A stretch of DNA of 34,192 bases, taken from positions 1 through 34,192 of the forward strand of contig JADMKN010000068.1 in the NCBI GenBank assembly GCA_015478825.1, read 5' to 3'. The translations under genes and the position numbers were made by a program. Position 1 is the stretch's first letter. Every line of letters begins with the position of its first letter. Origin of the DNA: Patulibacter sp. GTDB lineage: Bacteria > Actinomycetota > Thermoleophilia > Solirubrobacterales > Solirubrobacteraceae. The notes beneath the pieces are model-generated. The model did no database searches and had not been told where the DNA came from. It was given only the letters and a program-made list of their open reading frames with translations. This document shows positions 1,829-29,988 of the stretch, one piece after another.

Positions 1829-2473
1829 CTAGGCGCTTGCGCGCAGGGCGGCTTCGGGGAAGCCCGTGGCGAGCAGGCGGAAGCCGTCGTCGAGCTGCTC
1901 GAGCAGGTCGCCGCCGTCGCGGACCCACACGCGGTAGGTCGCGATCGAGACGCCGAGCGCGGCCTGGGCGACGACCTGGGGGACGTGGGCGTGCGCGTCG
2001 ACGGCGAGCCGCTCGGCGACGTAGTCGGCGATCACCTGGCACCAGTCGTGGTAGCGCAGCGTCGAGTGGGCCTGGAGCGCTGGGACGGTGGTGATCAGGT
2101 CCATCCGCACCCGCAGGACCGGCAGGCTGTCGGGACCCCAGTCGTTGAACGCGATCACCGAGCGGCGGACCGCTTCCAGCACCGGCTCGTCGGGCGGGCC
2201 GGCGCGCAGCGCGTCGTGCAGTCGGTCGAGCTGCTCGGAGAATTCGCCCCAGACGATGTCGTTCTTGGAGTCGTAGTACCGGAACAGCGTGCGGCGGTTG
2301 ATCCCGACGGCCCGACCGATCTCGTCGACGGTCGTCTCGTCGAAGCCGTGCTCGACGAACAGCCGCATCGCGGCGTCGGCGATCTCGCCGCGCGAGGTGC
2401 TCGGCGGCCGGCCGCGCGTGCCGCCGCGGCGGGGGGCGGCGGGGGCGGCCGATCGTCCTGTGGTCTGCGTCAC
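1829..2473 (-). CDS. mftR: TetR-family regulator, mycofactocin-system MftR-like
   Basis: AAMRLFVEHGFDETTVDEIGRAVGINRRTLFRYYDSKNDIVWGEF resembles the MftR-type helix-turn-helix (NRRTLFRYYxSKNxIxWGxF). Confidence 0.8.
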   Translation of the reverse strand: MTQTTGRSAAPAAPRRGGTRGRPPSTSRGEIADAAMRLFVEHGFDETTVDEIGRAVGINRRTLFRYYDSKNDIVWGEFSEQLDRLHDALRAGPPDEPVLEAVRRSVIAFNDWGPDSLPVLRVRMDLITTVPALQAHSTLRYHDWCQVIADYVAERLAVDAHAHVPQVVAQAALGVSIATYRVWVRDGGDLLEQLDDGFRLLATGFPEAALRASA

Positions 2474-10755: not shown

Positions 10756-11126
10756 TGGCGTACGCGACGTCCTGGGACGACCAGCCCGAGGTCGAGGGCC
10801 TGCCGAACAACTTCCGCGTGGCCGTGGCCGGCGCCCAAATGGGCGTCAACCGGATCCGCTGGGTGCACCCGACGGTGCTCCCCGAGCACTCGCACCCCGA
10901 TCACGAGCAGGCGAACATCGTGATCCAGGGAAAGGTCGAGGTCACGATCGGCGGCCAGACGATGATCCTCCAGGAGGGCGACGTCGCGATCGTGCCGAAG
11001 GGCACCCCGCACTCCGGGCGCAGCATCGAGGGCGAGGCCGTCTACATCGAGGTCTTCGCGCCGCTGCGGATCGAGAACCTGATCGGCGCCCTCGGCGCCC
11101 CGTCGCTGCCCCCGCAGGAGGACTGA
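10755..11126 (+). CDS. Small cupin-domain protein
   Basis: LPEHSHPDHEQANIVIQGKVEVTIGGQTMILQEGDVAIVPKGTPHSG cupin motifs 1 and 2; TGATG overlap with the upstream gene. Confidence 0.85.
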   Translation: MAYATSWDDQPEVEGLPNNFRVAVAGAQMGVNRIRWVHPTVLPEHSHPDHEQANIVIQGKVEVTIGGQTMILQEGDVAIVPKGTPHSGRSIEGEAVYIEVFAPLRIENLIGALGAPSLPPQED

Positions 11127-11129
11127 GCG

Positions 11130-11996: not shown

Positions 11997-12030
11997 GGCA
12001 CAGAAGACGCAAAGCAACGAGAAGGAACAG

Positions 12031-13209: not shown

Positions 13210-14792
13210 GCACCCCCAGCCACGTCACGACCGGAGCCGCCTCCGGCGGCCCCGGCACGGACGTCCTCCGAATCGCGGGACTCGTGAAGCGCTTCAACGG
13301 CGTTCCCGCCCTCGGTGGCGTGGACCTCGCCGTCGCGCCTGGCGAGGTTCATGGGCTCCTTGGCGCCAACGGCTGTGGCAAGTCCACGCTGATCAAGGTC
13401 CTCGCCGGCGTCCACGACGCCGACGAGGGCCAGGTCTTCGTGCTCGGGGAGCAGGTGCCGATGCCGTTCGGCTCCGACGGTCTCCGGGCCCGCGGCCTGT
13501 CCTTCGTGCACCAGGACCTCGGTCTCGCCGACGCGGCGACCGTGGTCGAGCACTTCGCGCTCGACGGCATCTCGTCGAAGGGCGCGGTCGCGCGGATCCC
13601 GTGGGCGCAGCAGCGCCGGCGGGTCGCCGAGCTGCTCCAGCGGTTCGGGGTCGCGGTCGATCCCGACGCGCGGATCGACCAGCTCACGCCGGTCCACCGC
13701 GCGATGGTGGCGATCGTCCGCGCCGTCGCGAGCCAGGAGCAGCTCCGCGAGGAGCACGGCGGCGAGCGTACGCCGCAGCTCCTGATCCTCGACGAGCCGA
13801 CCGTCTTCCTGCCGAAGGCCGACGTCGACATCCTCTTCGGCCTGGTCGACCGGCTGCGCCAGCAGGGCGACTCGGTGCTGTTCGTGTCGCACGACCTCGA
13901 CGAGGTGCTCGAGTTCTGCGACCGCGTCACCGTCCTGCGGGACGGCAAGCTGGCCGGCACCCGCGAGGTCGCGGGCCTGCAGCGCCCCGAGCTCGTCGAG
14001 CTGATCCTCGGCGTGCAGATCGGCGACGTCCAGCGCCCGACCGACGACCACCGGGCCCGTCCCGAGGTCGCGCTGTCGGTCTCCGACCTGACCGGCGAGA
14101 TGGTCGACGGCGTCGACCTGACGATCCACCCCGGCGAGGTCGTCGGGGTCACGGGGCTGGCGGGTTCGGGGATCGAGGAGATCACCGACCTGATCTACGG
14201 CGTGCGGGCCGCGAAGCACGGCACCGTCTCGGTCGCCGGCGAGGTGGTCAAGCACCCGACCCCGGCCGCGATGATGTCCCGCCACATCGTGCTGCTGCCC
14301 GCCGACCGCAAGACGCTCGGCAGCGCGCCGCGCCTGACGGTGCTGGAGAACATGTCGCTGCCGTTCCTCGACGGCGACTTCCAGGGGGGCCGGCTGAACT
14401 GGAAGCGGCTGCGTCAGCGCGCCGAGGAGGCGACGCAGCGGCTGCGGGTCAAGCCGCAGGACACGACCGCGCTGTTCAGCAGCCTGTCCGGTGGCAACCA
14501 GCAGAAGGCCCTGCTGGGCAAGTGGCTCGATACCCAGCCCGCAGTGATGCTGCTGGCCGAGCCGACCCAGGGCGTCGACGTCGGCGCCCGCCGGGAGATC
14601 TTCCGCCTCGTTCGCGAGGCCGTCGGAGCGGGCGCCTCGGTGCTCTGCGCCACCTCCGACTACGAGCAGCTCGTGCAGCTCGCCGATCGCGTCCTGATCT
14701 TCGCCAACGGACAGATCCGTGGCGAGCTCGTCGGGGACCAGATCACCAAAGACGCCCTCACGACCGCGATCTACGCAGGAGTCGCAGCATGA
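13206..14792 (+). CDS. Sugar ABC transporter ATP-binding protein (two NBDs, RbsA/XylG-like)
   Basis: GLLGANGCGKSTLIKVLAG, LLILDEPTVF, LSGGNQQKALLGKWL, LLAEPTQGVDVGARREIF; GTG start overlaps upstream stop. Confidence 0.9.
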   Translation: MSTPSHVTTGAASGGPGTDVLRIAGLVKRFNGVPALGGVDLAVAPGEVHGLLGANGCGKSTLIKVLAGVHDADEGQVFVLGEQVPMPFGSDGLRARGLSFVHQDLGLADAATVVEHFALDGISSKGAVARIPWAQQRRRVAELLQRFGVAVDPDARIDQLTPVHRAMVAIVRAVASQEQLREEHGGERTPQLLILDEPTVFLPKADVDILFGLVDRLRQQGDSVLFVSHDLDEVLEFCDRVTVLRDGKLAGTREVAGLQRPELVELILGVQIGDVQRPTDDHRARPEVALSVSDLTGEMVDGVDLTIHPGEVVGVTGLAGSGIEEITDLIYGVRAAKHGTVSVAGEVVKHPTPAAMMSRHIVLLPADRKTLGSAPRLTVLENMSLPFLDGDFQGGRLNWKRLRQRAEEATQRLRVKPQDTTALFSSLSGGNQQKALLGKWLDTQPAVMLLAEPTQGVDVGARREIFRLVREAVGAGASVLCATSDYEQLVQLADRVLIFANGQIRGELVGDQITKDALTTAIYAGVAA

Positions 14793-15862
14793 CGAACACC
14801 ACCACCGCGCCTCCGGCCTCGTCCGGCGAGGTGCGCAAGAAGAAGCAGCGCGAGCCCGAGCGGTTCGCCCTGATCGGCGTCTGGATCGCCGTGATCATCT
14901 TCTTCTCGTTCGCGACCGACCGGTTCATGACCGAGGGCAACATCTCGAGCCTGCTGGGCTCGCAGGCCGTCCTCCTGATCCTCGCGCTCGGGCTGCTGCT
15001 GCCGCTGCGCGTCGGCGACTTCGACCTGTCGGTCGCGTCGACGCTCGGCCTGTCCGCGATGCTCGTGGCGATCCTCAACGTCGAGCACGGCTGGAACGTG
15101 TGGCTCGCCGCGCTGTTCGCGGTGCTCGTCGGCTGCGTGATCGGCCTGACCAACGGCTTGATCGTCGTGCGATGGAACATCAACCCGTTCATCGTCACGC
15201 TCGGTATGTCGACGTTCATCCAGGGCGTGATCTTCTGGGTCTCGAAGTCGAACACGATCTCGGGCATCGACCCGGTGCTCTCGGACTTCGTCCTGCAGGA
15301 CACGATCTTCGGCATCCCGGCGGACTTCTGGTACGCGCTGATCGTCGCTGCGGTGATCTGGTACGTCTTCGAGTTCACGCCGCTCGGCCAGCGCTTCCTG
15401 TTCGTCGGCCAGAGCCAGGACATGGCGCGGCTCAACGGCATCGCCGTCTCCCGCACGCGGGTGATCGCCCTCGTCGCCTCCGGCGGCATCGCCGGACTCG
15501 CCGGCGTGGTGCTCGCCGGCTCGACCGGTAGCGCCGACCCGAACTCCGCCGCGTCGTTCCTGATGCCGGCGTTCGCCGCCTGCTTCCTCGGCACCACGGT
15601 GCTCAAGATCGGCCGCTTCAACCCCTGGGGCACCGTCATCGCCCTGTACTTCATCGGGACCGGCACCACCGGTCTCCAGCTGCTCGGCGCGCAGAACTAC
15701 GTCCAGCAGCTCTTCTACGGCGCGGCGCTGATCATCGCCGTGATCCTCGCCGAGGTGCTCCGCAAGCGGAACGCCCGACGACTGCAGAACGTCGCCCGCC
15801 AAGCCGCGCTCGCGGCCAAGAACGGCGACCGCTCGACCTCGAACGAAAAGGACAACGCATGA
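14789..15862 (+). CDS. Sugar ABC transporter permease (RbsC-like)
   Basis: Multiple hydrophobic segments; LLLPLRVGDFDLSVAST, NPFIVTLGMSTFIQG; adjacent to SBP and ATPase. Confidence 0.88.
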   Translation: MTNTTTAPPASSGEVRKKKQREPERFALIGVWIAVIIFFSFATDRFMTEGNISSLLGSQAVLLILALGLLLPLRVGDFDLSVASTLGLSAMLVAILNVEHGWNVWLAALFAVLVGCVIGLTNGLIVVRWNINPFIVTLGMSTFIQGVIFWVSKSNTISGIDPVLSDFVLQDTIFGIPADFWYALIVAAVIWYVFEFTPLGQRFLFVGQSQDMARLNGIAVSRTRVIALVASGGIAGLAGVVLAGSTGSADPNSAASFLMPAFAACFLGTTVLKIGRFNPWGTVIALYFIGTGTTGLQLLGAQNYVQQLFYGAALIIAVILAEVLRKRNARRLQNVARQAALAAKNGDRSTSNEKDNA

Positions 15863-16980
15863 AGACCCGCGGAGCCATCATCCAGGCCGTCGGCCGTGAC
15901 TGGGACGTCGTCGAGCTCGAGCTCGGCGAGCCGAACGACCACGAGGTACTGATCGAGGTCCACGCGTCGGGCCTCTGCCACTCCGACGCGCACCTGACCG
16001 ACGGCGACCTGCAGGTCGAGCTGCCGTTCGTCGGGGGGCACGAGGGCGCGGGCATCGTCAAGAAGGTCGGGTCGAAGGTGACCCGGGTCAAGGTCGGCGA
16101 CCACGTCTGCACCTCGTTCATCCCCGCCTGCGGCGTCTGCAAGTACTGCGCCTCCGGCCGCTCCAACCTGTGCCAGAACGGCTACCTGATGGAGCAGGGC
16201 AAGTCGATGGACGGCACCTACCGCTTCTTCCACGAGGGCACCGGGATGGGCGCGCTCTGCCGCCTGGGCACGTTCTCCGACCACATCGTCTGCTCCGAGC
16301 AGCAGGCGGTCAAGATCGACGACGACATCCCGCTCGACGTGGCCTGCCTGGTCTCCTGCGGCGTCGCGACCGGCTTCGGCGCGGCCGTCAACGTCGCCGA
16401 GGTCAAGCCCGGCGACGTGGTGATGATCGTCGGCATGGGCGGCGTCGGCGTCAACGCCGTGCAGGGAGCGGCCGCGGCCGGCGCGACCCACGTGGTCGTC
16501 GTCGACCCGGTCGAGTCCAAGCGCGAGCGCGCCGCGCAGTTCGGCGCGACGGCGACCTTCGCGACGATCGAGGAGGCCGTCCCGTACGTCCACGAGCGCA
16601 CCGAGTGGCAGGGCACCGACTCGACGATCATCACGGTCGACCGGGCCATGGGCGACCTGATCGCGGAGGCGTTCCGCACCGTCGCCAAGTCCGGGAGCTG
16701 CGTGCTCGTGGCCCTGGGCCCCGATTCGGAGATCATCCCCGTCCACCCGCAGGAGCTGCAGACGATGTCGCGCAGCATCAAGGGCGTGATGTTCGGCAAC
16801 TGCAACCCGCTGGCCGACATCCCCAGCCTGCTGGGCCAGTACAAGGCCGGCAAGCTCAAGCTCGACGAGCTCGTCACCACCCGCTACAAGCTCGACGACA
16901 TCAACCAGGGCTTCGAGGACATGAAGTCCGGCAAGAACATCCGTGGCGTGCTGATCCACGACCACGCCGCGTCCGCCTGA
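15859..16980 (+). CDS. Zn-dependent, NDMA/mycofactocin-dependent alcohol dehydrogenase
   Basis: GLCHSDAHL, GGHEGAGIV, CGVCKYCASGRSNLC zinc motifs; NGYLMEQGKSMDGTYRFFHEGTGMGALCRLGTFSDH segment typical of NDMA-dependent ADHs. Confidence 0.88.
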   Translation: MKTRGAIIQAVGRDWDVVELELGEPNDHEVLIEVHASGLCHSDAHLTDGDLQVELPFVGGHEGAGIVKKVGSKVTRVKVGDHVCTSFIPACGVCKYCASGRSNLCQNGYLMEQGKSMDGTYRFFHEGTGMGALCRLGTFSDHIVCSEQQAVKIDDDIPLDVACLVSCGVATGFGAAVNVAEVKPGDVVMIVGMGGVGVNAVQGAAAAGATHVVVVDPVESKRERAAQFGATATFATIEEAVPYVHERTEWQGTDSTIITVDRAMGDLIAEAFRTVAKSGSCVLVALGPDSEIIPVHPQELQTMSRSIKGVMFGNCNPLADIPSLLGQYKAGKLKLDELVTTRYKLDDINQGFEDMKSGKNIRGVLIHDHAASA

Positions 16981-16992
16981 GAGGCAGTCCCC

Positions 16993-18471
16993 ATGACGAA
17001 TTCCCCCGTTTCCGAGCACGCGCCGAAGATCGGCGACACCCGCCTGCTGATCGACGGTGAGCGCGTCGACAGCGCCGACGGCGCGACCTTCGCGGTCTAC
17101 AACCCGGCGACCGGCGAGGAGATCGCCCAGGTCGCCGAGGGCAAGTCCGAGGACATCGATCGTGCCGTCAAGGCGGCGCGCCGGGCCTTCGAGTCGGGCC
17201 CCTGGCGCGATATGAAGCCGAAGGACCGCGCCGCCGCGATCTGGCGGCTCGGCGAGCTGCTGGTCGAGAACAAGGAGGAGCTCGGCGGGCTCGAGACGCT
17301 CGACAACGGCAAGCCGTTCCTGCAGGCCCGGGACGGCGACGTCCCGACGGCCGCGGGGCTCTTCCACTACATGTCGGGCTGGGCGACCAAGCTCGAGGGC
17401 ACGACGATCCCGATCTCGTTCCCGGGCCAGTTCCACACCTTCACCCGTCGTGAGGCGGTCGGCGTGGTCGGCCTGATCGTGCCGTGGAACTTCCCGCTGA
17501 CGATCTCGGCCTGGAAGGTCGCTCCGGCGCTCGCCGCCGGCAACACCGTCGTGCTGAAGCCGTCCGAGGTCACGCCGCTGACCGCGCTGCGGCTCGGTGA
17601 CCTGGCGCTCGAGGCGGGCATCCCGCCCGGCGTGCTGAACGTCGTCCCGGGCTTCGGGGCCGACGCTGGCGCCGCGCTGACCGCGCATCCCGACGTCGAC
17701 AAGGTCTCGTTCACCGGCTCGACCGCGACCGGCCGCGCGATCATGCAGGCCGCGACCGGCAACATCAAGAAGCTGACGCTCGAGCTCGGGGGCAAGAGCC
17801 CCGACATCATCATGGGCGACGCCAACCTCGAGGCCGCGATCGCCGGCGCCGCGGACGGCATCTTCTACAACCAGGGCGAGGCCTGCGCCGCCGGTTCGCG
17901 GATCTACGCGCACCGGAGCGTCTACGACGAGGTCGTCGCGGGCATCTCCGCGGCCGCCAACGGCATCAACGTCGGCGACGGCTTCGACGCCAGCTCGTTC
18001 ATCGGCCCGCTGGTCAGCAAGGAGCACCACGCCAAGGTCCGCTCCTACGTCGACCTCGGTCGCGAGGAGGGCACGGTCGCCGCCGGCGGCGAGTACGCCA
18101 CCGACGGCGGCTACTTCGTCAACCCGACGGTCTTCACGGACGTCACCGACCAGTCCCGGGTCGTCCGCGAGGAGATCTTCGGGCCGGTCGTGTCGATCAT
18201 GCCGTTCGACGACACCGACGAGGTGATTCGTCGCGCCAACGACACCCGCTACGGGCTGTCGGCGGGCGTCTGGACCGAGAGCATCAGCACCGCCCACCGG
18301 ATGGCCGAGGCCCTCCGCGCCGGCACGGTGTGGGTCAACTGCTACGGCGTGTTCGACGCCGCGATGCCGTTCGGTGGCTACAAGGAGTCGGGCTGGGGCC
18401 GCGAGATGGGCGGCATCGTGCTCAACGACTACACCGAGACGAAGACGGTCTGCATCAAGATCGGCGACTGA
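16993..18471 (+). CDS. Aldehyde dehydrogenase (copy 1)
   Basis: VPWNFPLTISAWKVAPALAAGNTVVLKPSE, FTGSTATGRAI, LELGGKSPDI, NQGEACAAGSR. Confidence 0.93.
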   Translation: MTNSPVSEHAPKIGDTRLLIDGERVDSADGATFAVYNPATGEEIAQVAEGKSEDIDRAVKAARRAFESGPWRDMKPKDRAAAIWRLGELLVENKEELGGLETLDNGKPFLQARDGDVPTAAGLFHYMSGWATKLEGTTIPISFPGQFHTFTRREAVGVVGLIVPWNFPLTISAWKVAPALAAGNTVVLKPSEVTPLTALRLGDLALEAGIPPGVLNVVPGFGADAGAALTAHPDVDKVSFTGSTATGRAIMQAATGNIKKLTLELGGKSPDIIMGDANLEAAIAGAADGIFYNQGEACAAGSRIYAHRSVYDEVVAGISAAANGINVGDGFDASSFIGPLVSKEHHAKVRSYVDLGREEGTVAAGGEYATDGGYFVNPTVFTDVTDQSRVVREEIFGPVVSIMPFDDTDEVIRRANDTRYGLSAGVWTESISTAHRMAEALRAGTVWVNCYGVFDAAMPFGGYKESGWGREMGGIVLNDYTETKTVCIKIGD

Positions 18472-18496
18472 GCGGCGTCTCGAGCAGGAGAGAGCG

Positions 18497-19999
18497 ATGA
18501 GCGTGCAGATCCCCCGTCCGCGCGAGCACGCGCCGTCGATCGGCGACACCCGTCTGCTGATCGACGGCCAGCGCATCGACGCCCTGAGCGGCGGGACGTT
18601 CGCCACGGTCGACCCGTCGACCGGCGCCGAGCTGGCGCAGGTCGCCGAGGGCCGCAGCGAGGACATCGACCGGGCAGTCCAGGCCGCCCGGCGGGCGTTC
18701 GAGTCGGGCCCGTGGCCGCGGATCAAGCCGAACGAGCGGGCGCGGATCCTGCACCGGCTCGGGGACCTGATCCTCGAGCACCGGGACGAGCTGGCCGGGC
18801 TCGAGGCGCTCGACAACGGCAAGACGTTCGCGACCGCCCGCGCCTACGACATCACCGGCGCGGCCGAGCTCTTCCACTACATGGCGGGCTGGGTCACCAA
18901 GCTCGAGGGCACGACGATCCCGATCTCGTTCCCCGGGAACTTCCACACCTACACCCGGCGCGAGCCGGTCGGGGTGTGCGGGCTGATCGTGCCGTGGAAC
19001 TACCCGTTCGGCCAGTCGGCGTGGAAGGTCGCGCCGGCCCTGGCCTGCGGCAACACCGCGGTGCTGAAGCCGGCCGAGCAGACGCCGCTGTCGGCGCTGC
19101 GGCTCGGCGAGCTGGCGCTCGAGGCGGGGGTCCCGGAGGGCGTGCTGAACGTCGTTCCGGGCTTCGGCGGCGAGGCGGGGGCGGCCCTGGTCGCGCACGA
19201 CGACGTGGCGAAGATCGCGTTCACCGGATCGACCGAGACCGGCCGCGCGATCGTCCGCGGCGCGACGGGCAACGTCAAGAAGGTCTCGATCGAGCTCGGT
19301 GGCAAGAGCCCGAACATCGTCTTCGCCGACGCCGACCTGCCGACGGCGATCGCCGGGGCCGCGGCCGGCATCTTCTTCAACCAGGGCGAGGTCTGCACCG
19401 CCGGATCGCGGCTGTACGTCCAGGAGGCGGTCTACGACGATGTCGTGGCGGGCGTCGCCGACGCCGCGAAGGCGCTCAGGATCGGCGACGGGTTCGACCC
19501 GGCCACCGACGTCGGACCGCTGATCAGCGGCGCGCACCGCGACGTCGTCCGCGGCTACGTCGAGGCCGGGGTCGCGGCGGGCGCCGAGCTGGTCGCCGGC
19601 GGCGAGCCCGTCGGCGACGCCGGGTACTTCCTCTCGCCGGCCGTCTTCGCGGACGCGCGTCCCGAGATGTCGATCGTCCGCGAGGAGATCTTCGGGCCGG
19701 TCGTCTCGGTGATCCCGTTCCGCGACGTCGACGACGTGGTCGCCGCCGCGAACGACAGCCCGTTCGGGCTGGCGGCCGGGGTCTGGACGGAGGACGTCGG
19801 CAAGGCGCACCGGATGGCCGCGGCGCTCGAGGCCGGCACGGTGTGGGTCAACTGCTACGGCGTGTTCGACGCCGCGATGCCGTTCGGCGGGACCAAGCAG
19901 TCCGGTTGGGGCAAGGAGATGGGGCACGCGGTCCTCGAGGACTACACCGAGGCAAAGACCGTCTGCGTCGATATCGGCCCCGCCCACCCCGCCCGATGA
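18497..19999 (+). CDS. Aldehyde dehydrogenase (copy 2, tandem paralog)
   Basis: VPWNYPFGQSAWKVAPALACGNTAVLKPAE, FTGSTETGRAI, IELGGKSPNI, NQGEVCTAGSR; shares EHAPxIGDTRLLIDG N-terminus with copy 1. Confidence 0.93.
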   Translation: MSVQIPRPREHAPSIGDTRLLIDGQRIDALSGGTFATVDPSTGAELAQVAEGRSEDIDRAVQAARRAFESGPWPRIKPNERARILHRLGDLILEHRDELAGLEALDNGKTFATARAYDITGAAELFHYMAGWVTKLEGTTIPISFPGNFHTYTRREPVGVCGLIVPWNYPFGQSAWKVAPALACGNTAVLKPAEQTPLSALRLGELALEAGVPEGVLNVVPGFGGEAGAALVAHDDVAKIAFTGSTETGRAIVRGATGNVKKVSIELGGKSPNIVFADADLPTAIAGAAAGIFFNQGEVCTAGSRLYVQEAVYDDVVAGVADAAKALRIGDGFDPATDVGPLISGAHRDVVRGYVEAGVAAGAELVAGGEPVGDAGYFLSPAVFADARPEMSIVREEIFGPVVSVIPFRDVDDVVAAANDSPFGLAAGVWTEDVGKAHRMAAALEAGTVWVNCYGVFDAAMPFGGTKQSGWGKEMGHAVLEDYTEAKTVCVDIGPAHPAR

Positions 20000-20688
20000 G
20001 CGCGCGGCGCAGCAACGGTCGGTCCGCGATCGACCGCGTCGGCCACACGCTGGCCGACAAGGTCGAGACCGCGCTCCGCGAGGAGATCATCCGCGGCACG
20101 CGCGTCCCCGGCGAGCGGCTGAACGAGGTCGAGATCGCGTTCCAGCTCGGCGTCAGTCGTGGCCCCGTGCGCGAGGCGCTGCAGCGGCTCTCCCGCGACG
20201 GCCTGCTGCGGATGGAGTCGCACCGCGGGGCGTTCGTCCGCGAGCTCGACGTCGCCGAGGTCCGCGAGCTGTTCGAGGTCCGCGGATCGCTGGAGCGGCA
20301 GGCCGCGGCGCTGGCCGCCGAGCGCGCCGGCGCCGACGAGATCAGCGCCCTGCGCGCGCTGCTCGACCGCTCGCGCGACGCCGTCGAGGCCGAGGTCGAG
20401 CCGCACTACCCCGAGCGCCTGGACGTCCACGAGCTGATCGTGAGCTGCGCGCGCAACGCGGCCCTGGCCCGCTACCTGGCGCTCGTCAACCAGGAACTGA
20501 AGCTGGTGCGCGCCCGGTCGGGGTTCCTGACCGTCCGCGCGCCGAAGGCCTTCGAGGAGCACACGCGCGTGGTGGAGGCGATCGCCGCTCGCGATCCCCA
20601 CGCCGCGGCGGAGGCGATGAAGATCCATATGGAGTCGGCCCTGCAGAGCACGCTGGGCCTGCTCCGTGAACCGGGAGGAACCGAATGA
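19996..20688 (+). CDS. GntR family (FCD-type) transcriptional regulator, paralog of the 6863-7561 gene
   Basis: LREEIIRGTRVPGERLNEVEIAFQLGVSRGPVREALQRLSRDGLLRMESHRGAFV; ATGA overlaps on both sides. Confidence 0.9.
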   Translation: MSARRSNGRSAIDRVGHTLADKVETALREEIIRGTRVPGERLNEVEIAFQLGVSRGPVREALQRLSRDGLLRMESHRGAFVRELDVAEVRELFEVRGSLERQAAALAAERAGADEISALRALLDRSRDAVEAEVEPHYPERLDVHELIVSCARNAALARYLALVNQELKLVRARSGFLTVRAPKAFEEHTRVVEAIAARDPHAAAEAMKIHMESALQSTLGLLREPGGTE

Positions 20689-21425
20689 GCTTGATGAAGG
20701 ACCGCATCGTCGTGGTGACCGGCGGGAGCGCCGGCATCGGTGAGGCGTGCGTCGACCGCTTCCTCGCCGAGGGCGCGACCGTCGAGGCCTGGGATCGCGA
20801 CTCCGCGACCAGCGAGAAGCCGGGCGTCGTCCACCGCGTCGTCGACGTCTCGTCGGAGGACGCCGTGCGCGAGGCCGCCCAGGCGGCGGTCGCGCAGCAC
20901 GGGCACGTGAACGTGTTGGTCAACTGCGCCGGCGTGATCACCGAGAACAAGCCGGCCCAGGACGTCGACGCGGCGGACTACCGGAAGAACTTCGACGTCA
21001 ACGTGATGGGCATCGTCCACACCTCGCGTGCGCTGCACGCCACGCTGGCCGAGCAGCAGGGCGCGATCGTCAACGTCGCGTCGCAGGCCGCGCTGGTCTG
21101 CCTGCCGCACCAGTCGGCCTACTCGGCGAGCAAGGGCGCCGTCGCCGCGTTCACCCGCGCGACGGCGATCGACTGGGCCGCCGAGGGCCTGCGCGTCAAC
21201 GCCGTCTGCCCCGGGTTCACGCTGACCGCGATGGCCGAGAAGCAGATGACGCCCGAGCTGGACGCCGCGGTCTCGCGCCGCGTGCCGCTCGGCCGGTTCT
21301 TCCAGCCGGTCGAGATCGCCAACTCGATCCTCTTCCTGGCCAGCGACCTGGCGTCGGCGATCACCGGCGTCGTGATGCCGGTCGACGGCGGCTGGACGGC
21401 GGGCGAGCCCGCCCTCCCGATGTAG
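20685..21425 (+). CDS. SDR family oxidoreductase
   Basis: VVVTGGSAGIGEACVDRF, NCAGV, YSASKGAVAAFTRATA, VNAVCPGFTLT. Confidence 0.92.
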   Translation: MSLMKDRIVVVTGGSAGIGEACVDRFLAEGATVEAWDRDSATSEKPGVVHRVVDVSSEDAVREAAQAAVAQHGHVNVLVNCAGVITENKPAQDVDAADYRKNFDVNVMGIVHTSRALHATLAEQQGAIVNVASQAALVCLPHQSAYSASKGAVAAFTRATAIDWAAEGLRVNAVCPGFTLTAMAEKQMTPELDAAVSRRVPLGRFFQPVEIANSILFLASDLASAITGVVMPVDGGWTAGEPALPM

Positions 21426-21428
21426 GTG

Positions 21429-22211
21429 ATGACCGTGCGCTTGAAGGACAAGATCGCCCTCGTCACCGGCGCGGGCACCGGAATCGGCCAGGGCACGGCC
21501 GTCAAGCTCGCCGAGGAGGGCGCGTTCGTCGTGCTCGTCGGCCGCCGCGCCTCGGCGCTCGAGGACACCAAGGCGAAGATCGGCGACCGCGCCGTCGTGC
21601 TGCCGCTCGACGTCAGCTCGCGGGAGGACGTCGAGGCGAAGCTGCCCGCGGCGATCGCCGAGCACGGCGTGCCCGACATCGTCGTCCACGCCGCCGGCAA
21701 GACCGTCGTGGGGGCCCTGCACGAGCTGACGGACGAGCAGTGGGACGATCAGCTCGACGTCAACGTCCGCAGCATCCACCTGCTGACGCGGGTGCTGTGG
21801 CCGCTGATGGCCGCCGAGGATCGCCGGGGCCGCGACCAGTCGATCGTCACCATCGCCTCGACCGCGTCGTTCGCGGCCTTCCCGCAGGACGCCGCCTACG
21901 TGGCGTCCAAGGGCGCCGTGCTCGCGCTGACCAAGGCGATGGCCCTGGACGGCGCGTCGGTCGGCATCCGGGTCAACGCCGTCTGCCCGGGCTACATCCT
22001 GACCCCGAACCTGCAGGGCTACTTCGACGAGCAGGACGATCCGGAGGCCGCCAAGGCGGCATCGGCGGCGACGGCGCCGCTCAACCGGATGGGCACGCCG
22101 GAGGACATCGCCGGAGCGGTCGCGTTCTTCGCGTCCGAGGACGCGTCGTTCGTGACCGGCGCGTCGTTGCTGGTCGACGGCGGCGTGCTGGCGAAGGTGC
22201 CGCTCTCATGA
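21429..22211 (+). CDS. SDR family oxidoreductase
   Basis: ALVTGAGTGIGQGTAVKLAEEGA, HAAGKT, YVASKGAVLALTKAMA, VNAVCPGYILT; start may be GTG 21426 or ATG 21429. Confidence 0.92.
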   Translation: MTVRLKDKIALVTGAGTGIGQGTAVKLAEEGAFVVLVGRRASALEDTKAKIGDRAVVLPLDVSSREDVEAKLPAAIAEHGVPDIVVHAAGKTVVGALHELTDEQWDDQLDVNVRSIHLLTRVLWPLMAAEDRRGRDQSIVTIASTASFAAFPQDAAYVASKGAVLALTKAMALDGASVGIRVNAVCPGYILTPNLQGYFDEQDDPEAAKAASAATAPLNRMGTPEDIAGAVAFFASEDASFVTGASLLVDGGVLAKVPLS

Positions 22212-23251
22212 GCGCCCCGCGTCCGACGCTGAGCGTCGGGTTCCACCCGGACCGCCCGATCGCCGAGGTCGGCGACCTGGCGGCCGAGGCCGAGAAGCTC
22301 GGCTTCCACGGCGTCTGGGTCGCCGACTCGCAGAGCCTCTTCCGTGACGTCTACGCCGCCCTCACGGTCGCGGCGACGCGAACCTCGCGGATCGAACTGG
22401 GGACCGGGGTGACCAACCCGGTCAGTCGCCACCCCGCGGTGATCGCGAGCGTGCTGGGCACGATCGACGAGCTCTCCGGCGGCCGCCTGAAGATGGGCGT
22501 CGGCACGGGGGAGACCGCGGTCCAGTCGCTCGGGAAGAAGCGGGCGACGATCAAGCGGATGGAGAGCACGGCGGCGTTGATGCGCGGGCTCTGGGCGGGC
22601 GAGGCCGTCGAGTACGAGGAGGCGACGCTGACCCAGGACTGGCGCGCGCGTCGCGTGCCGGTGCTGTTCGCCTCGACCGGTCCGAAGTCGCTGCAGGCCG
22701 CGGGCCGCAGCGCTGACGGCGTGTACCTGAAGCTCGGGATCCACCCCGAGGTGATGGCCTACGCGCTGCGCAACGTGGCCCAGGGCCGCGAGGAATCGGG
22801 CAAGACCCTCGACGGCTTCCTGGTCAAGGCGATGATTCCGGTCGCCGTCGACGACGACGATCCGGACCGGGCCCGCGACGAGGTTCGCGGCCAGGCCGGG
22901 GCGATCGCCCGGGCCGCCGCGCTGGCGATCCCCGCCGAGGACCTGCCGTCGTCGCTTGCCGAGACGCTGGCGGATATCGAGCGCAAGGGCTCCGAGGCCC
23001 GGGGGAACCAGGGCTACGTCGAGTGGCTGCACAGCCCCGAGTACGCGGCCTCGATCCCGGACGAGATCGTCGACGCGTTCGCGATCGCCGGAACCTCGCA
23101 GCAGGTCGCCGACCGGATCAACGGCCTGGGCGCGCTCGGGATCACCGGCGTGATCCCGCCCCTGACGATGCCGGACCCGTGGCCGACGTTGCGCGCGATC
23201 GGCCAGGGCGTCGTGCCGCGGCTGGATCCGACGACCGCCGAGTCGGCCTGA
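22208..23251 (+). CDS. LLM-class flavin/F420-dependent oxidoreductase
   Basis: LGFHGVWVADSQSLFRDVYAALTVAATRTSRIELGTGVTNPVSRHPAVIASVLGTIDELSGGRLKMGVGTGETAV. Confidence 0.88.
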   Translation: MSAPRPTLSVGFHPDRPIAEVGDLAAEAEKLGFHGVWVADSQSLFRDVYAALTVAATRTSRIELGTGVTNPVSRHPAVIASVLGTIDELSGGRLKMGVGTGETAVQSLGKKRATIKRMESTAALMRGLWAGEAVEYEEATLTQDWRARRVPVLFASTGPKSLQAAGRSADGVYLKLGIHPEVMAYALRNVAQGREESGKTLDGFLVKAMIPVAVDDDDPDRARDEVRGQAGAIARAAALAIPAEDLPSSLAETLADIERKGSEARGNQGYVEWLHSPEYAASIPDEIVDAFAIAGTSQQVADRINGLGALGITGVIPPLTMPDPWPTLRAIGQGVVPRLDPTTAESA

Positions 23252-23285
23252 CGCCGGCGAGCGGGGGCGATTCGGTCGCGTGGGC

Positions 23286-23334
23286 GGCCGGCATCACACC
23301 CGCTCGCGACCGCGGTGCGCGTCCCGCGCCGGCC
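23286..23334 (+). terminator. Candidate hairpin between the catabolic operon and mftA
   Basis: GGCCGGC (23286-23292) / GCCGGCC (23328-23334) with an inner GCGCG-TCC-CGCGC hairpin; no U-tract. Confidence 0.3.
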
Positions 23335-23369: not shown

Positions 23370-23423
23370 TTGTATTTGTCATTCAGTGACGTAAGTGATA
23401 CAACGTCACGTGAGCACGGTCAC
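23370..23423 (+). promoter_or_regulatory. Nested/overlapping dyads in the mftA promoter (candidate regulator operator)
   Basis: TTGTAT-N22-ATACAA (23370-23403), GTCA-N5-TGAC (23378-23390), GTGACGT-N10-ACGTCAC (23386-23409), TCACGTGA (23406-23413), GTGA-N6-TCAC (23410-23423). Confidence 0.6.
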
Positions 23424-23439
23424 AACCAAGGAGCACCCC

Positions 23440-23577
23440 ATGACGGACCCCGTCGCCGAGAACCAGGAAGTCGAAGCCACCGAGACCGCCCCGGTCGAGA
23501 CCAGCACCGAGGCGCTCGTCGACGAGCAGCTGCTGATCGAGGACGTCTCGATCGACGGGATGTGCGGGGTCTACTAG
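23440..23577 (+). CDS. mftA: Mycofactocin precursor peptide
   Basis: MTDPVAENQEVEATETAPVETSTEALVDEQLLIEDVSIDGMCGVY; conserved C-terminal IDGMCGVY core; AAGGAG ribosome binding site 6 nt upstream of ATG; followed by mftB and mftC. Confidence 0.95.
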   Translation: MTDPVAENQEVEATETAPVETSTEALVDEQLLIEDVSIDGMCGVY

Positions 23578-23604: not shown

Positions 23605-23943
23605 ATGAGCACGATGACCTCCGCCTCCGAGCCGGACTCCGCCGTTCCCGCTGGTGATCAGCCCGCGGCGCAGGTCGACCTCGACGGCCCCTGGATGCTG
23701 AGTCCGCAGGTCGCGCTGCGCCCCGAACGCTTCGGGGCGCTCGCGTACCACTTCGGCACCCGCCGCCTGTCGTTCCTCAAGAGCCCGCAGCTCCTCGCGG
23801 TGGTCGAAGCCCTCACCGACCACGCCACCGTGCGCGACGCCTGCCGCGCCGTCGGGGTCACCGACGCCGAGCTGCCGACCTACGAGAGCGCCCTCGGCAC
23901 GCTCGCCCGCACCGACATGATCGTCCCCCGGAGTCCCGCATGA
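23605..23943 (+). CDS. mftB: Mycofactocin-system RRE/chaperone protein MftB
   Basis: PWMLSPQVALRPERFGALAYHFGTRRLSFLKSPQLLAVVEAL matches the MftB pattern; overlaps the radical SAM start by ATGA. Confidence 0.93.
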   Translation: MSTMTSASEPDSAVPAGDQPAAQVDLDGPWMLSPQVALRPERFGALAYHFGTRRLSFLKSPQLLAVVEALTDHATVRDACRAVGVTDAELPTYESALGTLARTDMIVPRSPA

Positions 23944-25232
23944 GCACCCTCGAACACGCCACGCCGGCGAAGATCGCTCGCCCCGTCGGCCGTCTGGTCG
24001 ACGAGTTCCAGTCCGGCCTCGACGCGCCGATCTGCCTGACCTGGGAGCTGACCTACGCCTGCAACCTGGCGTGCGTCCACTGCCTGTCCAGCTCCGGCCG
24101 CCGCGACCCGCGCGAGCTCTCGACCGACGAGTGCAAGGCGGTGATCGACGAGCTCCAGCGGATGCAGGTCTTCTACGTCAACATCGGCGGCGGCGAGCCG
24201 ACCGTCCGCAAGGACTTCTGGGAGCTCGTCGACTACGCGACCGCGCACCAGGTCGGCGTCAAGTTCTCGACCAACGGCAGCCGGATCGACGCCGAGGTAG
24301 CAGCGAAGCTCGCCGCCAGCGACTACGTCGACGTCCAGATCTCGCTCGACGGCGCGACCGCCGACGTCAACGACTACGTTCGCGGCCCCGGCTCGTACGA
24401 CACGGCGATGACCGCGATGCAGCACCTCTCCGACGCCGGCTTCGAGGGCTTCAAGCTGTCGGTCGTCTGCACCCGCCAGAACATCGGCCAGCTCGACGAG
24501 TTCAAGGCGATCGCCGACCGCTACGGCGCCCAGCTCCGGCTGACCCGCCTGCGCCCGTCCGGCCGCGGCGCCGACACCTGGGACGAGCTGCACCCGCTGC
24601 CGCACCAGCAGAAGGAGCTCTACGACTGGCTCGTGGCGCACGGCGAGGACGTCCTGACCGGCGACTCGTTCTTCCATCTCGCCGCGTACGGCGACGCGCT
24701 GCCGGGACTCAATCTCTGCGGCGCCGGGCGCGTCGTCTGCCTGATCGACCCGATCGGCGACGTCTACGCCTGCCCGTTCGCGATCCACGACGAGTTCCTC
24801 GCCGGCAACCTGCGGGCCGAGGGTGGGTTCCAGAAGGTCTGGCGCGAGTCGGAGCTGTTCCAGGAGCTGCGCGCGCCGCAGTCGGCGGGCGCCTGCAATA
24901 GCTGCCAGTTCTTCGACAAGTGCCGCGGCGGCTGCATGGCCGCCAAGTTCTTCACCGGCCTGCCGATGGACGGCCCGGACCCCGAGTGCGTGCTCGGCCA
25001 CGGCGAGCAGCTCCTCGCGGACCGCGGCGACGACCTGCTGCCGAAGCCGTCGAAGGACTACTCGAAGAAGCTCTCCAAGCGCCAGCGCCTGGAGAAGGCC
25101 GCCGCCGAGCGCGGCATCACCCTGCCGGACGTGCTGCCGTCCGAGGTGGGGGCCGGCGCAGGTCCCGACGCCATGCCCGACCGCGCGTGCGACGAGAACC
25201 CGCTGGCCGGCTTCGCCGTGCAGCAGCGATAG
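23940..25232 (+). CDS. mftC: Mycofactocin radical SAM maturase MftC (SPASM)
   Basis: CNLACVHC (CX3CX2C) radical SAM motif; C-terminal SPASM Cys cluster CNSCQFFDKCRGGC...PDPEC. Confidence 0.95.
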   Translation: MSTLEHATPAKIARPVGRLVDEFQSGLDAPICLTWELTYACNLACVHCLSSSGRRDPRELSTDECKAVIDELQRMQVFYVNIGGGEPTVRKDFWELVDYATAHQVGVKFSTNGSRIDAEVAAKLAASDYVDVQISLDGATADVNDYVRGPGSYDTAMTAMQHLSDAGFEGFKLSVVCTRQNIGQLDEFKAIADRYGAQLRLTRLRPSGRGADTWDELHPLPHQQKELYDWLVAHGEDVLTGDSFFHLAAYGDALPGLNLCGAGRVVCLIDPIGDVYACPFAIHDEFLAGNLRAEGGFQKVWRESELFQELRAPQSAGACNSCQFFDKCRGGCMAAKFFTGLPMDGPDPECVLGHGEQLLADRGDDLLPKPSKDYSKKLSKRQRLEKAAAERGITLPDVLPSEVGAGAGPDAMPDRACDENPLAGFAVQQR

Positions 25233-25244
25233 GAGCTTCCCAAG

Positions 25245-26435
25245 ATGGCCAGTACCAAGACGTGGTTCGAGTCGGTTGCCGAAGCGCAGCGTCGAGCCAA
25301 GAAGCGCCTGCCCGCGTCGGTCTACGGCGCGCTGATCGCCGGTGCCGAGAGCGGCATCACGGTCGACGACAACGTCACCGCGTTCCGCGAGCTCGGGTTC
25401 TTCCCGCGGATCGCGACCGGGCAGGACGGCAACCGCGACCTGTCCACGACGATCCAGGGCCTCGACGTGTCGATGCCGGTGATGATCTCGCCGACCGGCG
25501 TCCAGGCCGTCCACCCCGAGGGCGAGGTCGCCGTCGGACGGGCCGCCGCGCACGCCGGGATCGCGCAGGGCCTCAGCTCGTTCGCCTCCAAGTCGATGGA
25601 GGACGTGATCGCGGTCAACGACACGCTGTTCTTCCAGATGTACTGGATGGGCGACCGCGACCGGCTGCTGCAGATCATGGATCGCGCGCGGAGGACCGGC
25701 GTCAAGGGGATCATCCTGACCCTCGACTGGACCTTCGCCCACCGCCGCGACTGGGGCAGCCCCGAGATCCCGGCGAAGATCGACGCCAAGGTCGCGCTCA
25801 AGATGGCGCCTGAGGTGCTGCGGCGTCCCCGGTGGATCAAGCAGTACCTGCAGGCCGGCGGCCCGCCCGACCTCTCGGCGCCGAACATGGCCCGTCCCGG
25901 CGAGCCGGCGCCCGGCTTCTTCGACGCCTACGGCGAATGGATGATGACCCCGCTGCCGTCGTGGGACGACATCGCTTGGCTGCGTTCGCAGTGGGAGGGG
26001 CCGTTCATCGTCAAGGGGATCACCCGTCCCGAGGACGCGATCGCCGCGGCCGACGCGGGCGTGTCGGGGATCTCGGTCTCCAACCACGGCGGCAACAACC
26101 TCGACGGCACCCCGGCGTCGATCCGGGCCCTGCCGGGCGTCGTCGACGCGGTCGGCGACCGGGTCGAGATCCTGCTCGACGGCGGGATCCGCCGCGGCAG
26201 CGACGTCGTCAAGGCCGTGGCGCTCGGCGCGCAGGCCGTGCTGATCGGCCGGGCCGCGCTGTGGGGCCTGGCGGCCAACGGCGAGGCCGGCGTCGGCAAC
26301 GTGCTGGAGATCCTGCGCGCGGGAATCCAGGAGACGCTCGCCGGGATCGGCCGCGAGTCGATCCACGACGTGACCGCCGAGGACGTGCTGGTGCCCGACG
26401 GCTTCGTGCGGCGTCCGCAGGGCGCCTCGGTCTGA
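25245..26435 (+). CDS. mftD: Mycofactocin FMN-dependent deaminase MftD (lactate dehydrogenase/glycolate oxidase fold)
   Basis: GISVSNHGGNNLDGTPASIRALP, LLDGGIRRGSDVVKAVALGAQAVLIGR; position after mftC. Confidence 0.93.
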   Translation: MASTKTWFESVAEAQRRAKKRLPASVYGALIAGAESGITVDDNVTAFRELGFFPRIATGQDGNRDLSTTIQGLDVSMPVMISPTGVQAVHPEGEVAVGRAAAHAGIAQGLSSFASKSMEDVIAVNDTLFFQMYWMGDRDRLLQIMDRARRTGVKGIILTLDWTFAHRRDWGSPEIPAKIDAKVALKMAPEVLRRPRWIKQYLQAGGPPDLSAPNMARPGEPAPGFFDAYGEWMMTPLPSWDDIAWLRSQWEGPFIVKGITRPEDAIAAADAGVSGISVSNHGGNNLDGTPASIRALPGVVDAVGDRVEILLDGGIRRGSDVVKAVALGAQAVLIGRAALWGLAANGEAGVGNVLEILRAGIQETLAGIGRESIHDVTAEDVLVPDGFVRRPQGASV

Positions 26436-26454
26436 CCATGCTGGGACAGGTCCC

Positions 26455-27147
26455 GTGACGTCGCTGTCGTCCCTGCGCTGGACCGACGTCGCGGACCTGC
26501 GGGACCGGCTGCTGGTCGTGCCGCTCGGCGCGACCGAGCAGCACGGACCCCACCTGCCGCTGAGCACCGACACAGTGATCGCCTGCGAGCTGGCCGACGC
26601 GGTCGGCCGCGAGCGCGACGACGTCGTGGTGGCGCCGGCGGTGCCGTACGGGGCGAGCGGCGAGCACCAGGCGTTCGACGGGACGCTCTCGATCGGCTCC
26701 GCGGCCACCGAGCTGCTGCTGATCGAGCTCGCGCGCTCGGCGACGGAGACCTTCCGGCGGGTGCTGTTCGTCTCGACCCATGGCGGCAACGCCGAAGCGG
26801 TGCGTTCCGCCGTCCAGCGGTTGCGGGCCGAGGGGCGCGACGTCCGTGCCTGGGGACCGACCTGGGGCGGCGACGCGCACGCCGGGACGAGCGAGACCTC
26901 GGTGATGTTGGCGATCCGGCCGGAGCAGGTCGGCGTCGACCGCCTGGAGCCGGGCGCCACGCGTCCGATCCGCGATCTGCTGCCGGAGCTGCAGCGCGAC
27001 GGCGTGCGCGGGGTCAGCGCCAACGGGATCCTCGGCGACGCGACGACCGCGTCCGAGGAGCAGGGCCGGACCGCCCTGCGCCGCGCGACCGGCGAGCTGG
27101 TGGCGTTCGTCGCCGGATGGCCGCCCGTCCTCACCCCGACCCGGTAG
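26455..27147 (+). CDS. mftE: Mycofactocin precursor peptidase MftE (creatininase family)
   Basis: PLGATEQHGPHLPLSTDTVIA, VSTHGGNAEAV; GTG start. Confidence 0.93.
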   Translation: MTSLSSLRWTDVADLRDRLLVVPLGATEQHGPHLPLSTDTVIACELADAVGRERDDVVVAPAVPYGASGEHQAFDGTLSIGSAATELLLIELARSATETFRRVLFVSTHGGNAEAVRSAVQRLRAEGRDVRAWGPTWGGDAHAGTSETSVMLAIRPEQVGVDRLEPGATRPIRDLLPELQRDGVRGVSANGILGDATTASEEQGRTALRRATGELVAFVAGWPPVLTPTR

Positions 27148-27157
27148 CGTCGGGGAC

Positions 27158-28699
27158 GTGCCAGCGTCCGACCGCATGGGGATCGCGTTGGACCGCGCGA
27201 CGCGGCGGTACGGCGACGGGCGGGTGCTGGTCGGCGGGTCGCCCCGGCGGGTGCTGCGACTGAGCGCCCCGGGCGCCGCCGCGGTCGACGCGCTGCAGGC
27301 CGGGGAGGCGACCACCCCGGTCGTGCTCGCGCTCGGACGGCAGTTGATCGACGCGGGACTGGCGCACCCCGAGCCGGCCACGCCGCGGTTCGCGCCGAGC
27401 GTGACCGTCGTGATCCCGGTCCGCGACCGGGCGCCCGAGCTCGACCGCTGCCTGACGACGCTCGGGCCGCGGGGCCGCCGCAACGGACGCAGGGGACGGT
27501 TCGAGGTCCTCGTGGTCGACGACGGCTCGAGCGACGCCGCGGCGATCCGCGCGGTCTGCGCCTGGCACGGCACCGGCCTGTTGCGCCTGCCGCGATCCGA
27601 AGGGCCGGCGGCGGCGCGCAACGCGGCGCTCGCGTGGGTCTCGAGCGAGCTGGTGGCGTTCCTCGACAGCGACTGCGTGGCCCCGGCCAACTGGGTCGCC
27701 GAGCTGTCGGGCTACTTCGACGATCCCCGGGTCGGAGCCGTCGCGCCGCGGGTTCGCTCGCTGGTCGGGCGCGGCTTCGTCGGACGCTACGCGGCGGCCC
27801 GCTCCCCGCTCGACATGGGGGAGCGACCCTGCGCGGTCGCGCCGGGCAACGTCGTCTCCTACGTCCCGACCGCCGCGCTGGTGGTGCGTCGCGCGGCGCT
27901 CGGCGAAGGGTTCGATCCGGCGTTGCGCTACGGCGAGGACGTCGACCTGGTCTGGCGGTTGAGCGACGGCGGCTGGAGGGTCCGCTACGTGCCCGCGGTC
28001 GAGGTCGACCACGAGGACCCCGAGGACTGGCGCACGCTGCTGCGGCGGCGCTGGGCCTACGGCAGCTCGGCGGGTCCGCTCGCCGAGCGCCACGGCGCCC
28101 GGCTGGCGCCGGTGGTGCTGCAGCCGGCCGCGACCGTGGCCGCCGCGCTGCTGCTGACCCGGCGTCCCGGCGCGGCGGCGCTGGTGACCCTGGCCCGGTC
28201 GGGCTGGATGGCGCACCGGCTGCGCTCGTCCGGCGTGCCGGTGCGGTGGGCCGGGCCGTGGACCCTGCAGACGCTCGCCCGGACGCTCGACGGGCTGGCG
28301 CGGACGGGGACGATCCTCGCCGCGCCGGCGCTGCTGACGGGCATGCTCGTGCCGTCGCGCGTGCGCACGCCGCTGGTCCTGCTGGCGGTCGGCAGCGGCG
28401 CGGCGTCGTGGTGGCGCGAGGGCCGCGGGCACGACCTCGATCCGCTGCGCTGGACGCTCGCGAGCTGGCTCGACGACGCGGCCTACGGAGCGGGGGTCTG
28501 GAGCGGCAGCGTGCGCTCGCGGACGCCGTGGGCGGTGCTGCCGGCGGTCGGCGGGTCGGGTGAGCTGCGGCGCGCCTGGTCGGTGGCGGCCGAGCGGGTC
28601 GGCGCGCTGCGCGACCGGGCGCCGGCGGTCGGTCGCCGGCTCGCGGCGGCGCGGCGCGGGTTCGGCGCCGTGCGGCGAGGCCTGCGGCGCGTCCCGTGA
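27158..28699 (+). CDS. mftF: Mycofactocin glycosyltransferase MftF (GT2 family)
   Basis: PSVTVVIPVRDRAPELDRCLTTL, VVDDGSSD, FLDSDCVAPANWV, YGEDVDLVWRL; order after mftE. Confidence 0.92.
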   Translation: MPASDRMGIALDRATRRYGDGRVLVGGSPRRVLRLSAPGAAAVDALQAGEATTPVVLALGRQLIDAGLAHPEPATPRFAPSVTVVIPVRDRAPELDRCLTTLGPRGRRNGRRGRFEVLVVDDGSSDAAAIRAVCAWHGTGLLRLPRSEGPAAARNAALAWVSSELVAFLDSDCVAPANWVAELSGYFDDPRVGAVAPRVRSLVGRGFVGRYAAARSPLDMGERPCAVAPGNVVSYVPTAALVVRRAALGEGFDPALRYGEDVDLVWRLSDGGWRVRYVPAVEVDHEDPEDWRTLLRRRWAYGSSAGPLAERHGARLAPVVLQPAATVAAALLLTRRPGAAALVTLARSGWMAHRLRSSGVPVRWAGPWTLQTLARTLDGLARTGTILAAPALLTGMLVPSRVRTPLVLLAVGSGAASWWREGRGHDLDPLRWTLASWLDDAAYGAGVWSGSVRSRTPWAVLPAVGGSGELRRAWSVAAERVGALRDRAPAVGRRLAAARRGFGAVRRGLRRVP

Positions 28700-29988
28700 C
28701 GTCCCCGAGGCCGACGTCCGGCGGCGACGCGGCGGCCGATCAGCCGCCGGAGGCCCGCGAGGCCCGCGAGCGGATCGCCGACCTGCCGTCGGAGCTGGGC
28801 GCCGCGCTGCGTCCGATCCTTCCCGACGTGGCGGACGAGATCCTGACCGCGATCCGGCTCGAGGTCGACGAGTACCGGCGGCCGTTCGAGGGGCGGTTCG
28901 GCGACGCGGTCCGGAGCGGCGTCGAGTTCACGCTCGGCGAGTTCGTGGCGATGCTCGAGGACCCGGCGCGGCAGCCGGCCGGGACCGAGATGATCGAGCA
29001 GTTGGGGCGCGGCGAGGTCCGCTCTGGACGGACGTTGGACGCGCTCCAGGCGGCGTACCGCTGCGGGGCGCGGGTCGCCTGGCGGCGGTTCGGCGACGCG
29101 GCCCGGGCCCACGGCGCCGATCAACGCACGCTGATCCGGCTCGGTGACGCGATCTTCGCCTACATCCACCGTCTGGCCGCGCTCTCGGTCGCCGGCTGGG
29201 CCGACGAGCAGACGTTGCGCGCGGGGGCGACCCAGCGCTCGCGGGACGCGCTGGTCCGCCTGATCGCGTCGTCGACCCGGGTCCCGGTCGAGGATCTCGA
29301 CGCCGCCGCCCAGGCGTTGGCCTGGGCGCCGCCCCGCGAGGTCGCGGTGGTCGTGCTGATGGGGTCGGAGAACGCCGGCGACCTGCTGCGGATCGACCCC
29401 GGCGTGGTCGCCGCCGCGCGGGACGGCGCGGTGATCGGGATCGTGCCGGTGCCGACGGCGCTGGCCCGGGTCCGCGAAGCGCTGCGACACGCGCCCGCGG
29501 TGCTCGGCCCGACGGTGCCGTGGCCGCGGGTCGGTCGGTCGTACCGTCGCGCCCGGTCGGTCGCCGCGCTGCTCGACGCCGGCCGGATCGGGACCCCGGC
29601 CCGGCCCGGGCTGGTGCAGGCCGTCGATCATCTCGCGGACGAGGTCGTCCACGCCAACCCCGAGGCGGCCGAGGACCTGGCCGCAGCGATGCTCGGTCCG
29701 ATCGAACGGCTGCCCGAGAGCCGGCGGGCGCGGCACCTCGAGACGCTGCGGGCGTGGCTCGACCACCGCGGGCATGGGCCGCGGATGGCCGAGGCGCTGC
29801 ATCTTCACGCCCAGACCGTGCGCTACCGCGTGGCGCGGCTGCGGGAGACGCTGGACGTCGACCTCGACGACCCCGACGACCGGTTCGCGATCGAGCTCGC
29901 CCTCCGCTGGCGGGCCGGGCCGACCTCTACGGACCGTCTATTGCCGTTTGGTGATATTGAACACAACGGTCCACGCGGAGAGGCGTAG
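28696..29988 (+). CDS. PucR-family helix-turn-helix regulator
   Basis: C-terminal MAEALHLHAQTVRYRVARLRETLDVDLDDPDDRFAIELALR HTH_30; GTG start overlaps mftF stop. Confidence 0.85.
   Translation: MTSPRPTSGGDAAADQPPEAREARERIADLPSELGAALRPILPDVADEILTAIRLEVDEYRRPFEGRFGDAVRSGVEFTLGEFVAMLEDPARQPAGTEMIEQLGRGEVRSGRTLDALQAAYRCGARVAWRRFGDAARAHGADQRTLIRLGDAIFAYIHRLAALSVAGWADEQTLRAGATQRSRDALVRLIASSTRVPVEDLDAAAQALAWAPPREVAVVVLMGSENAGDLLRIDPGVVAAARDGAVIGIVPVPTALARVREALRHAPAVLGPTVPWPRVGRSYRRARSVAALLDAGRIGTPARPGLVQAVDHLADEVVHANPEAAEDLAAAMLGPIERLPESRRARHLETLRAWLDHRGHGPRMAEALHLHAQTVRYRVARLRETLDVDLDDPDDRFAIELALRWRAGPTSTDRLLPFGDIEHNGPRGEA

What the first reader, a model, noticed from the sequence alone, without database searches (positions are those of the whole stretch)
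23370..23423. Dense nested dyads covering the mftA promoter
Within about 54 bp there are several overlapping inverted repeats: TTGTAT-N22-ATACAA, GTCA-N5-TGAC, GTGACGT-N10-ACGTCAC, TCACGTGA and GTGA-N6-TCAC, with GTSAC half-sites recurring. A plausible promoter (TTGTCA-N17-TACAAC) lies inside. MftR-type TetR proteins are known to control mft promoters, and the PucR coupled to mftF is a second candidate ligand. Multiple half-sites suggest cooperative or alternative dimer binding.
Basis: partly seen in the sequence, partly recalled or inferred. Interest (0 to 1): 0.6.

Follow-up and report, generated by a model that had tools for sequence, protein, structure and literature searches.

The report
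MftR operator at the mycofactocin promoter
The overlapping mirror-image repeats in front of a mycofactocin gene contain one real switch site, a variant of the site known from mycobacteria where the repressor MftR binds, while the other repeats look like chance; this helps explain the regulation but is not a new kind of system.

Summary
The dyads are present as described, at 23370-23423. Only one stands out: GTCA-N5-TGAC (23378-23390), inside T-N2-GTCA-N5-TGAC-N2-A, the layout of the footprinted Mycobacterium smegmatis MftR operator (T-N2-GGCA-N5-TGCC-N2-A, PMC8728441). GNCA-N5-TGNC lies upstream of mftA in 44 of 81 relatives (6.8±2.5 in shuffles), only at spacing 5. A matrix trained without the window's class gives the window site 21.5 bits; the next best in 34 kb is 5.2, nothing in 6 Mb of random sequence reaches it, and the untrained M. 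smegmatis operator scores 22.9. Within Patulibacter the site keeps 62-71% identity to the window, its flanks 10-37%. Every locus with MftR nearby has the site. The window's TetR (1829-2473) passes the MftR cut-off. The other dyads are not conserved and near chance. The PucR is not linked to mft in relatives. Best reading: one MftR dimer on the -35/spacer represses mftA-F. Local twists: mftR lies 21 kb away instead of divergently adjacent, the second operator of four sister loci is absent, and the GTCA half-site goes with an unusual MftR recognition helix (exploratory).

The parts
23374..23394 (.). MftR operator (O_mft): ATTTGTCATTCAGTGACGTAA, core GTCA-N5-TGAC at 23378-23390
   Evidence: 21.5-21.9 bits with matrices trained without it, next best in the window 5.2-5.8; conserved in Patulibacter while flanks are not; same layout as the footprinted M. 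smegmatis operator
23376..23381 (+). -35-like TTGTCA, overlapping the left operator half
   Evidence: sequence; register comparable to sister loci; not found by a strict consensus scan
23399..23404 (+). -10-like TACAAC, aligned with TAGAAG in sister loci
   Evidence: inferred, start site not mapped
23428..23433 (+). ribosome-binding site AAGGAG
   Evidence: sequence
23440..23577 (+). mftA, mycofactocin precursor
   Evidence: TIGR03969, 44.9 bits over cut-off 25
23605..28699 (+). mftB, mftC, mftD, mftE, mftF: the operon the operator would control
   Evidence: NCBIfam equivalogs TIGR03967, TIGR03966, TIGR03964, TIGR03965 over cut-off; mftC by 87-90% identity to the mftC of sister mft clusters
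1829..2473 (-). mftR, TetR-family repressor, 21 kb from mftA
   Evidence: TIGR03968, 235.5 bits over cut-off 224.9; only hit over cut-off in this genome
23370..23423 (.). remaining dyads (TTGTAT-N22-ATACAA, GTGACGT-N10-ACGTCAC, TCACGTGA, GTGA-N6-TCAC): not conserved, probably chance

Best explanation
The site at 23374-23394 is the operator of MftR. An MftR homodimer binds the palindrome T-N2-GTCA-N5-TGAC-N2-A, which overlaps the -35 element and the spacer of the mftA promoter, and blocks RNA polymerase, keeping mftABCDEF off. An acyl-CoA-type ligand, as shown for M. smegmatis MftR, would release it. Shown here: sequence conservation, spacing, promoter position, association with MftR, and the family of the window's TetR. 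Inferred: binding, repression, the ligand and the start site.
For: GNCA-N5-TGNC upstream of mftA in 44/81 relatives against 6.8+-2.5 in shuffles, peak only at spacing 5. Matrix without Thermoleophilia: window 21.5, next 5.2, zero of 6 Mb random positions, M. smegmatis operator 22.9. Operator identity 62-71% against 10-37% in flanks. All 63 loci with MftR nearby have the site (62 without the window), 9 of 17 without MftR do (Fisher 8e-7); loci not used to train the matrix give 25/25 against 4/11 (P=4e-5). The window TetR passes the MftR cut-off and is the only one in the genome to do so. Footprint, repression and oleoyl-CoA response of the M. smegmatis homologue: PMC8728441.
Against: The half-site is GTCA, not the mycobacterial GGCA. 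mftR is 21 kb away, not divergent from mftA. The strict promoter scan finds nothing. No binding data exist for this protein. In M. smegmatis single substitutions in the palindrome did not stop binding (PMC8728441), so the base-level code is loose there.
Confidence: 0.88

Rival explanations
1. Several dyads work together: MftR dimers bind cooperatively to two or more overlapping sites in the 54 bp.
For: Seven short dyads (arms >=4, gap <=10) against 2.9 expected, P=0.016. Four sister mftA promoters have two operators exactly 22 bp apart, and P. minatonensis has a pair 23 bp apart upstream of a dehydrogenase gene, so paired binding sites occur in the genus.
Against: In the window no second site exceeds 5.8 bits, and the position 22 bp upstream holds no palindrome. 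The four other dyads are not kept at the same register in sister loci.
Confidence: 0.07
2. The PucR-like regulator encoded after mftF binds one of the other dyads (for example GTGACGT-N10-ACGTCAC).
For: Its gene overlaps the end of mftF (starts 28696, mftF ends 28699), so it may be co-transcribed with mft.
Against: Orthologues (64-67% identity) sit away from mft in the four mft-bearing sister genomes where one was found (in two of these judged only by different contigs), and also in two Patulibacter genomes that gave no mftC match; in P. minatonensis the gene is next to an aldehyde dehydrogenase gene, 2.5 Mb from mft. The dyads it would need are not conserved.
Confidence: 0.04
3. The dyads outside the operator form a 5' leader RNA hairpin that influences mftA translation or mRNA stability.
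For: GTGA-N6-TCAC would lie at or near the 5' end of the transcript; some sister leaders carry short GTG...CAC dyads at a similar place (by eye).
Against: The leader folds no better than its shuffles (z=0.15); no consistent structure seen across sister loci.
Confidence: 0.03

Closest known systems
MftR operator O_mft of Mycobacterium smegmatis (PMC8728441)
   Same: Layout T-N2-GNCA-N5-TGNC-N2-A upstream of mftA; the footprinted sequence scores like the window site with a matrix trained on neither (22.9 and 21.5); an MftR equivalog is in the genome.
   Different: Half-site GTCA instead of GGCA; the core starts 62 bp before the mftA ATG, against -79 to -53 for the M. smegmatis footprint; mftR is not adjacent here.
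mftA promoters of sister Patulibacter loci (L002, L003, L004, L005, L006, L031)
   Same: Operator at the same place in the promoter, 62-71% identical to the window site.
   Different: mftR is close upstream and divergent in these; four of the six carry a second operator 22 bp upstream; half-sites GGCA, GACA or degenerate ones.

Membership tests
MftR operator (O_mft) | palindrome T-N2-GGCA-N5-TGCC-N2-A as given for mycobacteria | tested here: inconclusive
   Layout and spacing met exactly; second base of each half-site is T/A instead of G/C. That position varies across the phylum (G 42, A 8, T 5 of 55 left half-sites), so a strict GGCA rule would exclude many MftR-linked loci.
MftR operator (O_mft) | lies in the promoter region just upstream of mftA | tested here: met
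   23374-23394, mftA ATG at 23440
MftR operator (O_mft) | genome encodes an MftR equivalog | tested here: met
   1829-2473, TIGR03968 235.5 bits over cut-off 224.9
MftR operator (O_mft) | bound by MftR (footprint or EMSA) | not testable with these tools
   needs purified protein
MftR operator (O_mft) | release by long-chain acyl-CoA | not testable with these tools
   shown only for M. smegmatis MftR (PMC8728441)
PucR-regulated promoter | regulator gene conserved next to the mft operon | tested here: not met

The most novel reading that the evidence does not exclude
MftR and its operator co-evolve by a readable code. MftRs with an unusual recognition helix (GI-NRR in the window, GI-NKR in Dactylosporangium, GI-SGR in two genomes of another genus) have turned the half-site from GGCA to GTCA on both sides, and in the window's lineage mftR has moved into another gene cluster and has no operator of its own. 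In P. minatonensis a pair of MftR sites also stands before a putative mycofactocin-dependent alcohol dehydrogenase gene, so MftR would control users of the cofactor as well.
Probability: 0.35. Interest if true: 0.45.

Novelty: new member of a known kind. Interest (0 to 1): 0.3.

Why it matters
It extends a switch described for mycobacteria to a distant class of Actinomycetota and gives a phylum-wide motif (GNCA-N5-TGNC in the promoter core) for finding genes controlled by MftR. It also offers a cheap test of how TetR-family recognition helices choose half-sites, and it makes PucR an unlikely mft regulator here.

Tried and rejected
Dense nested dyads as a cooperative array: near chance and not conserved. 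PucR as ligand: genomic context against it. A further MftR site in the own genome (C176:2239, 18.6 bits on 19 columns): lies inside a coding sequence, so judged chance; the genome search used the exact pattern only and may miss sites with a mismatch. A simple rule 'N in the recognition helix gives GTCA' failed: two genomes with GI-SGR also have symmetric GTCA; only the looser statement holds (helices other than [GSA]RR: symmetric GTCA 4/8 against 0/71, P=5e-5; at least one GTCA 6/8 against 3/71, P=8e-6), and its categories were made after seeing the data and ignore relatedness. Presence of the strict pattern alone against MftR presence is not significant (P=0.10); the matrix is needed. RNA hairpin in the leader: no better than shuffles.

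Full report
What was checked. The window (34,192 bases, a whole contig) lies in a genome whose genus-mates include Patulibacter minatonensis and other Patulibacter records. It holds mftA 23440-23577, then mftB to mftF up to 28699, a PucR-like gene at 28696-29988, and an MftR at 1829-2473 on the minus strand.

Chance. Against dinucleotide shuffles of the same 54 bp, the number of short dyads is modestly high (7 against 2.9, P=0.016), and the longer ones are not clearly so (P=0.065 for arms of 6 or more, P=0.125 for the 7-bp dyad). Density is therefore a weak argument.

Conservation. Upstream regions of mftA were taken from 86 loci with a readable mftA, the window and four duplicate records included. 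GNCA-N5-TGNC occurs in 44 of 81 distinct relatives against 6.8+-2.5 in shuffles (largest of 200: 12), and no other spacing from 0 to 20 exceeds 14. A 21-column symmetric matrix trained without the window scores the window site 21.9, next best in 34 kb 5.8. With the Patulibacter, Conexibacter and other known Thermoleophilia loci removed from training, the window site scores 21.5 (next 5.2), no position of 6 Mb of random sequence reaches it, and the footprinted M. smegmatis operator, which was not in the training set, scores 22.9 (sequence from PMC8728441). Within Patulibacter, identity to the window is 62-71% in the operator but 10-37% in the 30 bases on either side; the other four dyads are not kept at the same register.

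Link to MftR. All 63 loci with an MftR within the fetched stretch have a site scoring at least 10 (62 without the window); of 17 without one, 9 do (Fisher 8e-7). Loci not used in training give 25/25 against 4/11 (P=4e-5). 'Without' means not in the fetched 4-9 kb, so a distant mftR would count as absent. The weakest MftR-linked site is L002 (10.2 bits). In the class-wide search most further MftR loci also carry the site next to mftA.

Position and mechanism. The site overlaps TTGTCA (23376-23381) and the spacer before TACAAC (23399-23404). In many other actinobacteria it sits between a TTCCAT/TTGCAT-like -35 and a TAGTAT-like -10 (by eye). This is a classical place for a repressor that excludes RNA polymerase. 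For M. smegmatis, DNase I footprinting, repression on overexpression and release by long-chain acyl-CoA are published (PMC8728441). For this genome these steps are inferred.

What is different here. In 50 of the 63 loci mftR was scored as divergent and adjacent to mftA (L002, L065 and L091 were left out of the 50 only because their open frames run on). In the window mftR is 21 kb away on the minus strand, close behind other minus-strand genes (MmgE/PrpD-like and flavoprotein frames; names partly by recall), and no operator lies in front of it. Four sister loci have a second operator 22 bp upstream (L004 with one deviating base in the second site); the window does not. P. minatonensis has two sites 23 bp apart upstream of an iron-type alcohol dehydrogenase gene that follows mftR. 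A T at position 2 of the half-site goes with unusual recognition helices; this was found by looking and rests on few independent lineages, so it is a lead.

PucR. Orthologues occur in six of seven sister Patulibacter genomes, including two (G004, G005) in which no mftC was found; in the mft-bearing ones they lie on other contigs or 2.5 Mb away. Its place behind mftF is peculiar to this genome among those held.

Verdict. An MftR operator with a variant half-site, in the expected place, plus chance dyads. It is ordinary in kind, with two modestly interesting details (the relocated mftR and the helix/half-site association).

Noticed in passing
L053:2541-2584 (P. minatonensis): Two MftR-type sites (14.9 and 19.6 bits) 23 bp apart upstream of an iron-type alcohol dehydrogenase gene, probably a mycofactocin-dependent enzyme (family recalled from its sequence, not tested).
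   Followed up: partly
window 23252-23320: Strong GC-rich stem between the LLM oxidoreductase gene and the mftA promoter (-43.4 kcal/mol, z=-2.2), without a T run; possibly a terminator that insulates mft.
   Followed up: partly
window 7700-23251: Catabolic cluster between mftR and mftA with ABC transporter genes, an NDMA-dependent alcohol dehydrogenase (TIGR03989, 15859-16980), aldehyde dehydrogenases and SDRs: likely users of mycofactocin; no MftR site in front of them.
   Followed up: partly
L165:2112-2133, L166:1395-1416: GTCA-N5-TGAC between a divergent MftR relative and (in L165, read by eye) mftE instead of mftA, in two genomes of one genus.
   Followed up: partly
L063:6568 and 8719; L099:9077: Additional high-scoring MftR-type sites away from mftA (21.5, 25.5 and 28.6 bits), possible further regulon members.
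   Followed up: no
L002 (G003:C12) and L031 (G003:C190): One Patulibacter genome has two mft loci, each with its own MftR and different operators.
   Followed up: no
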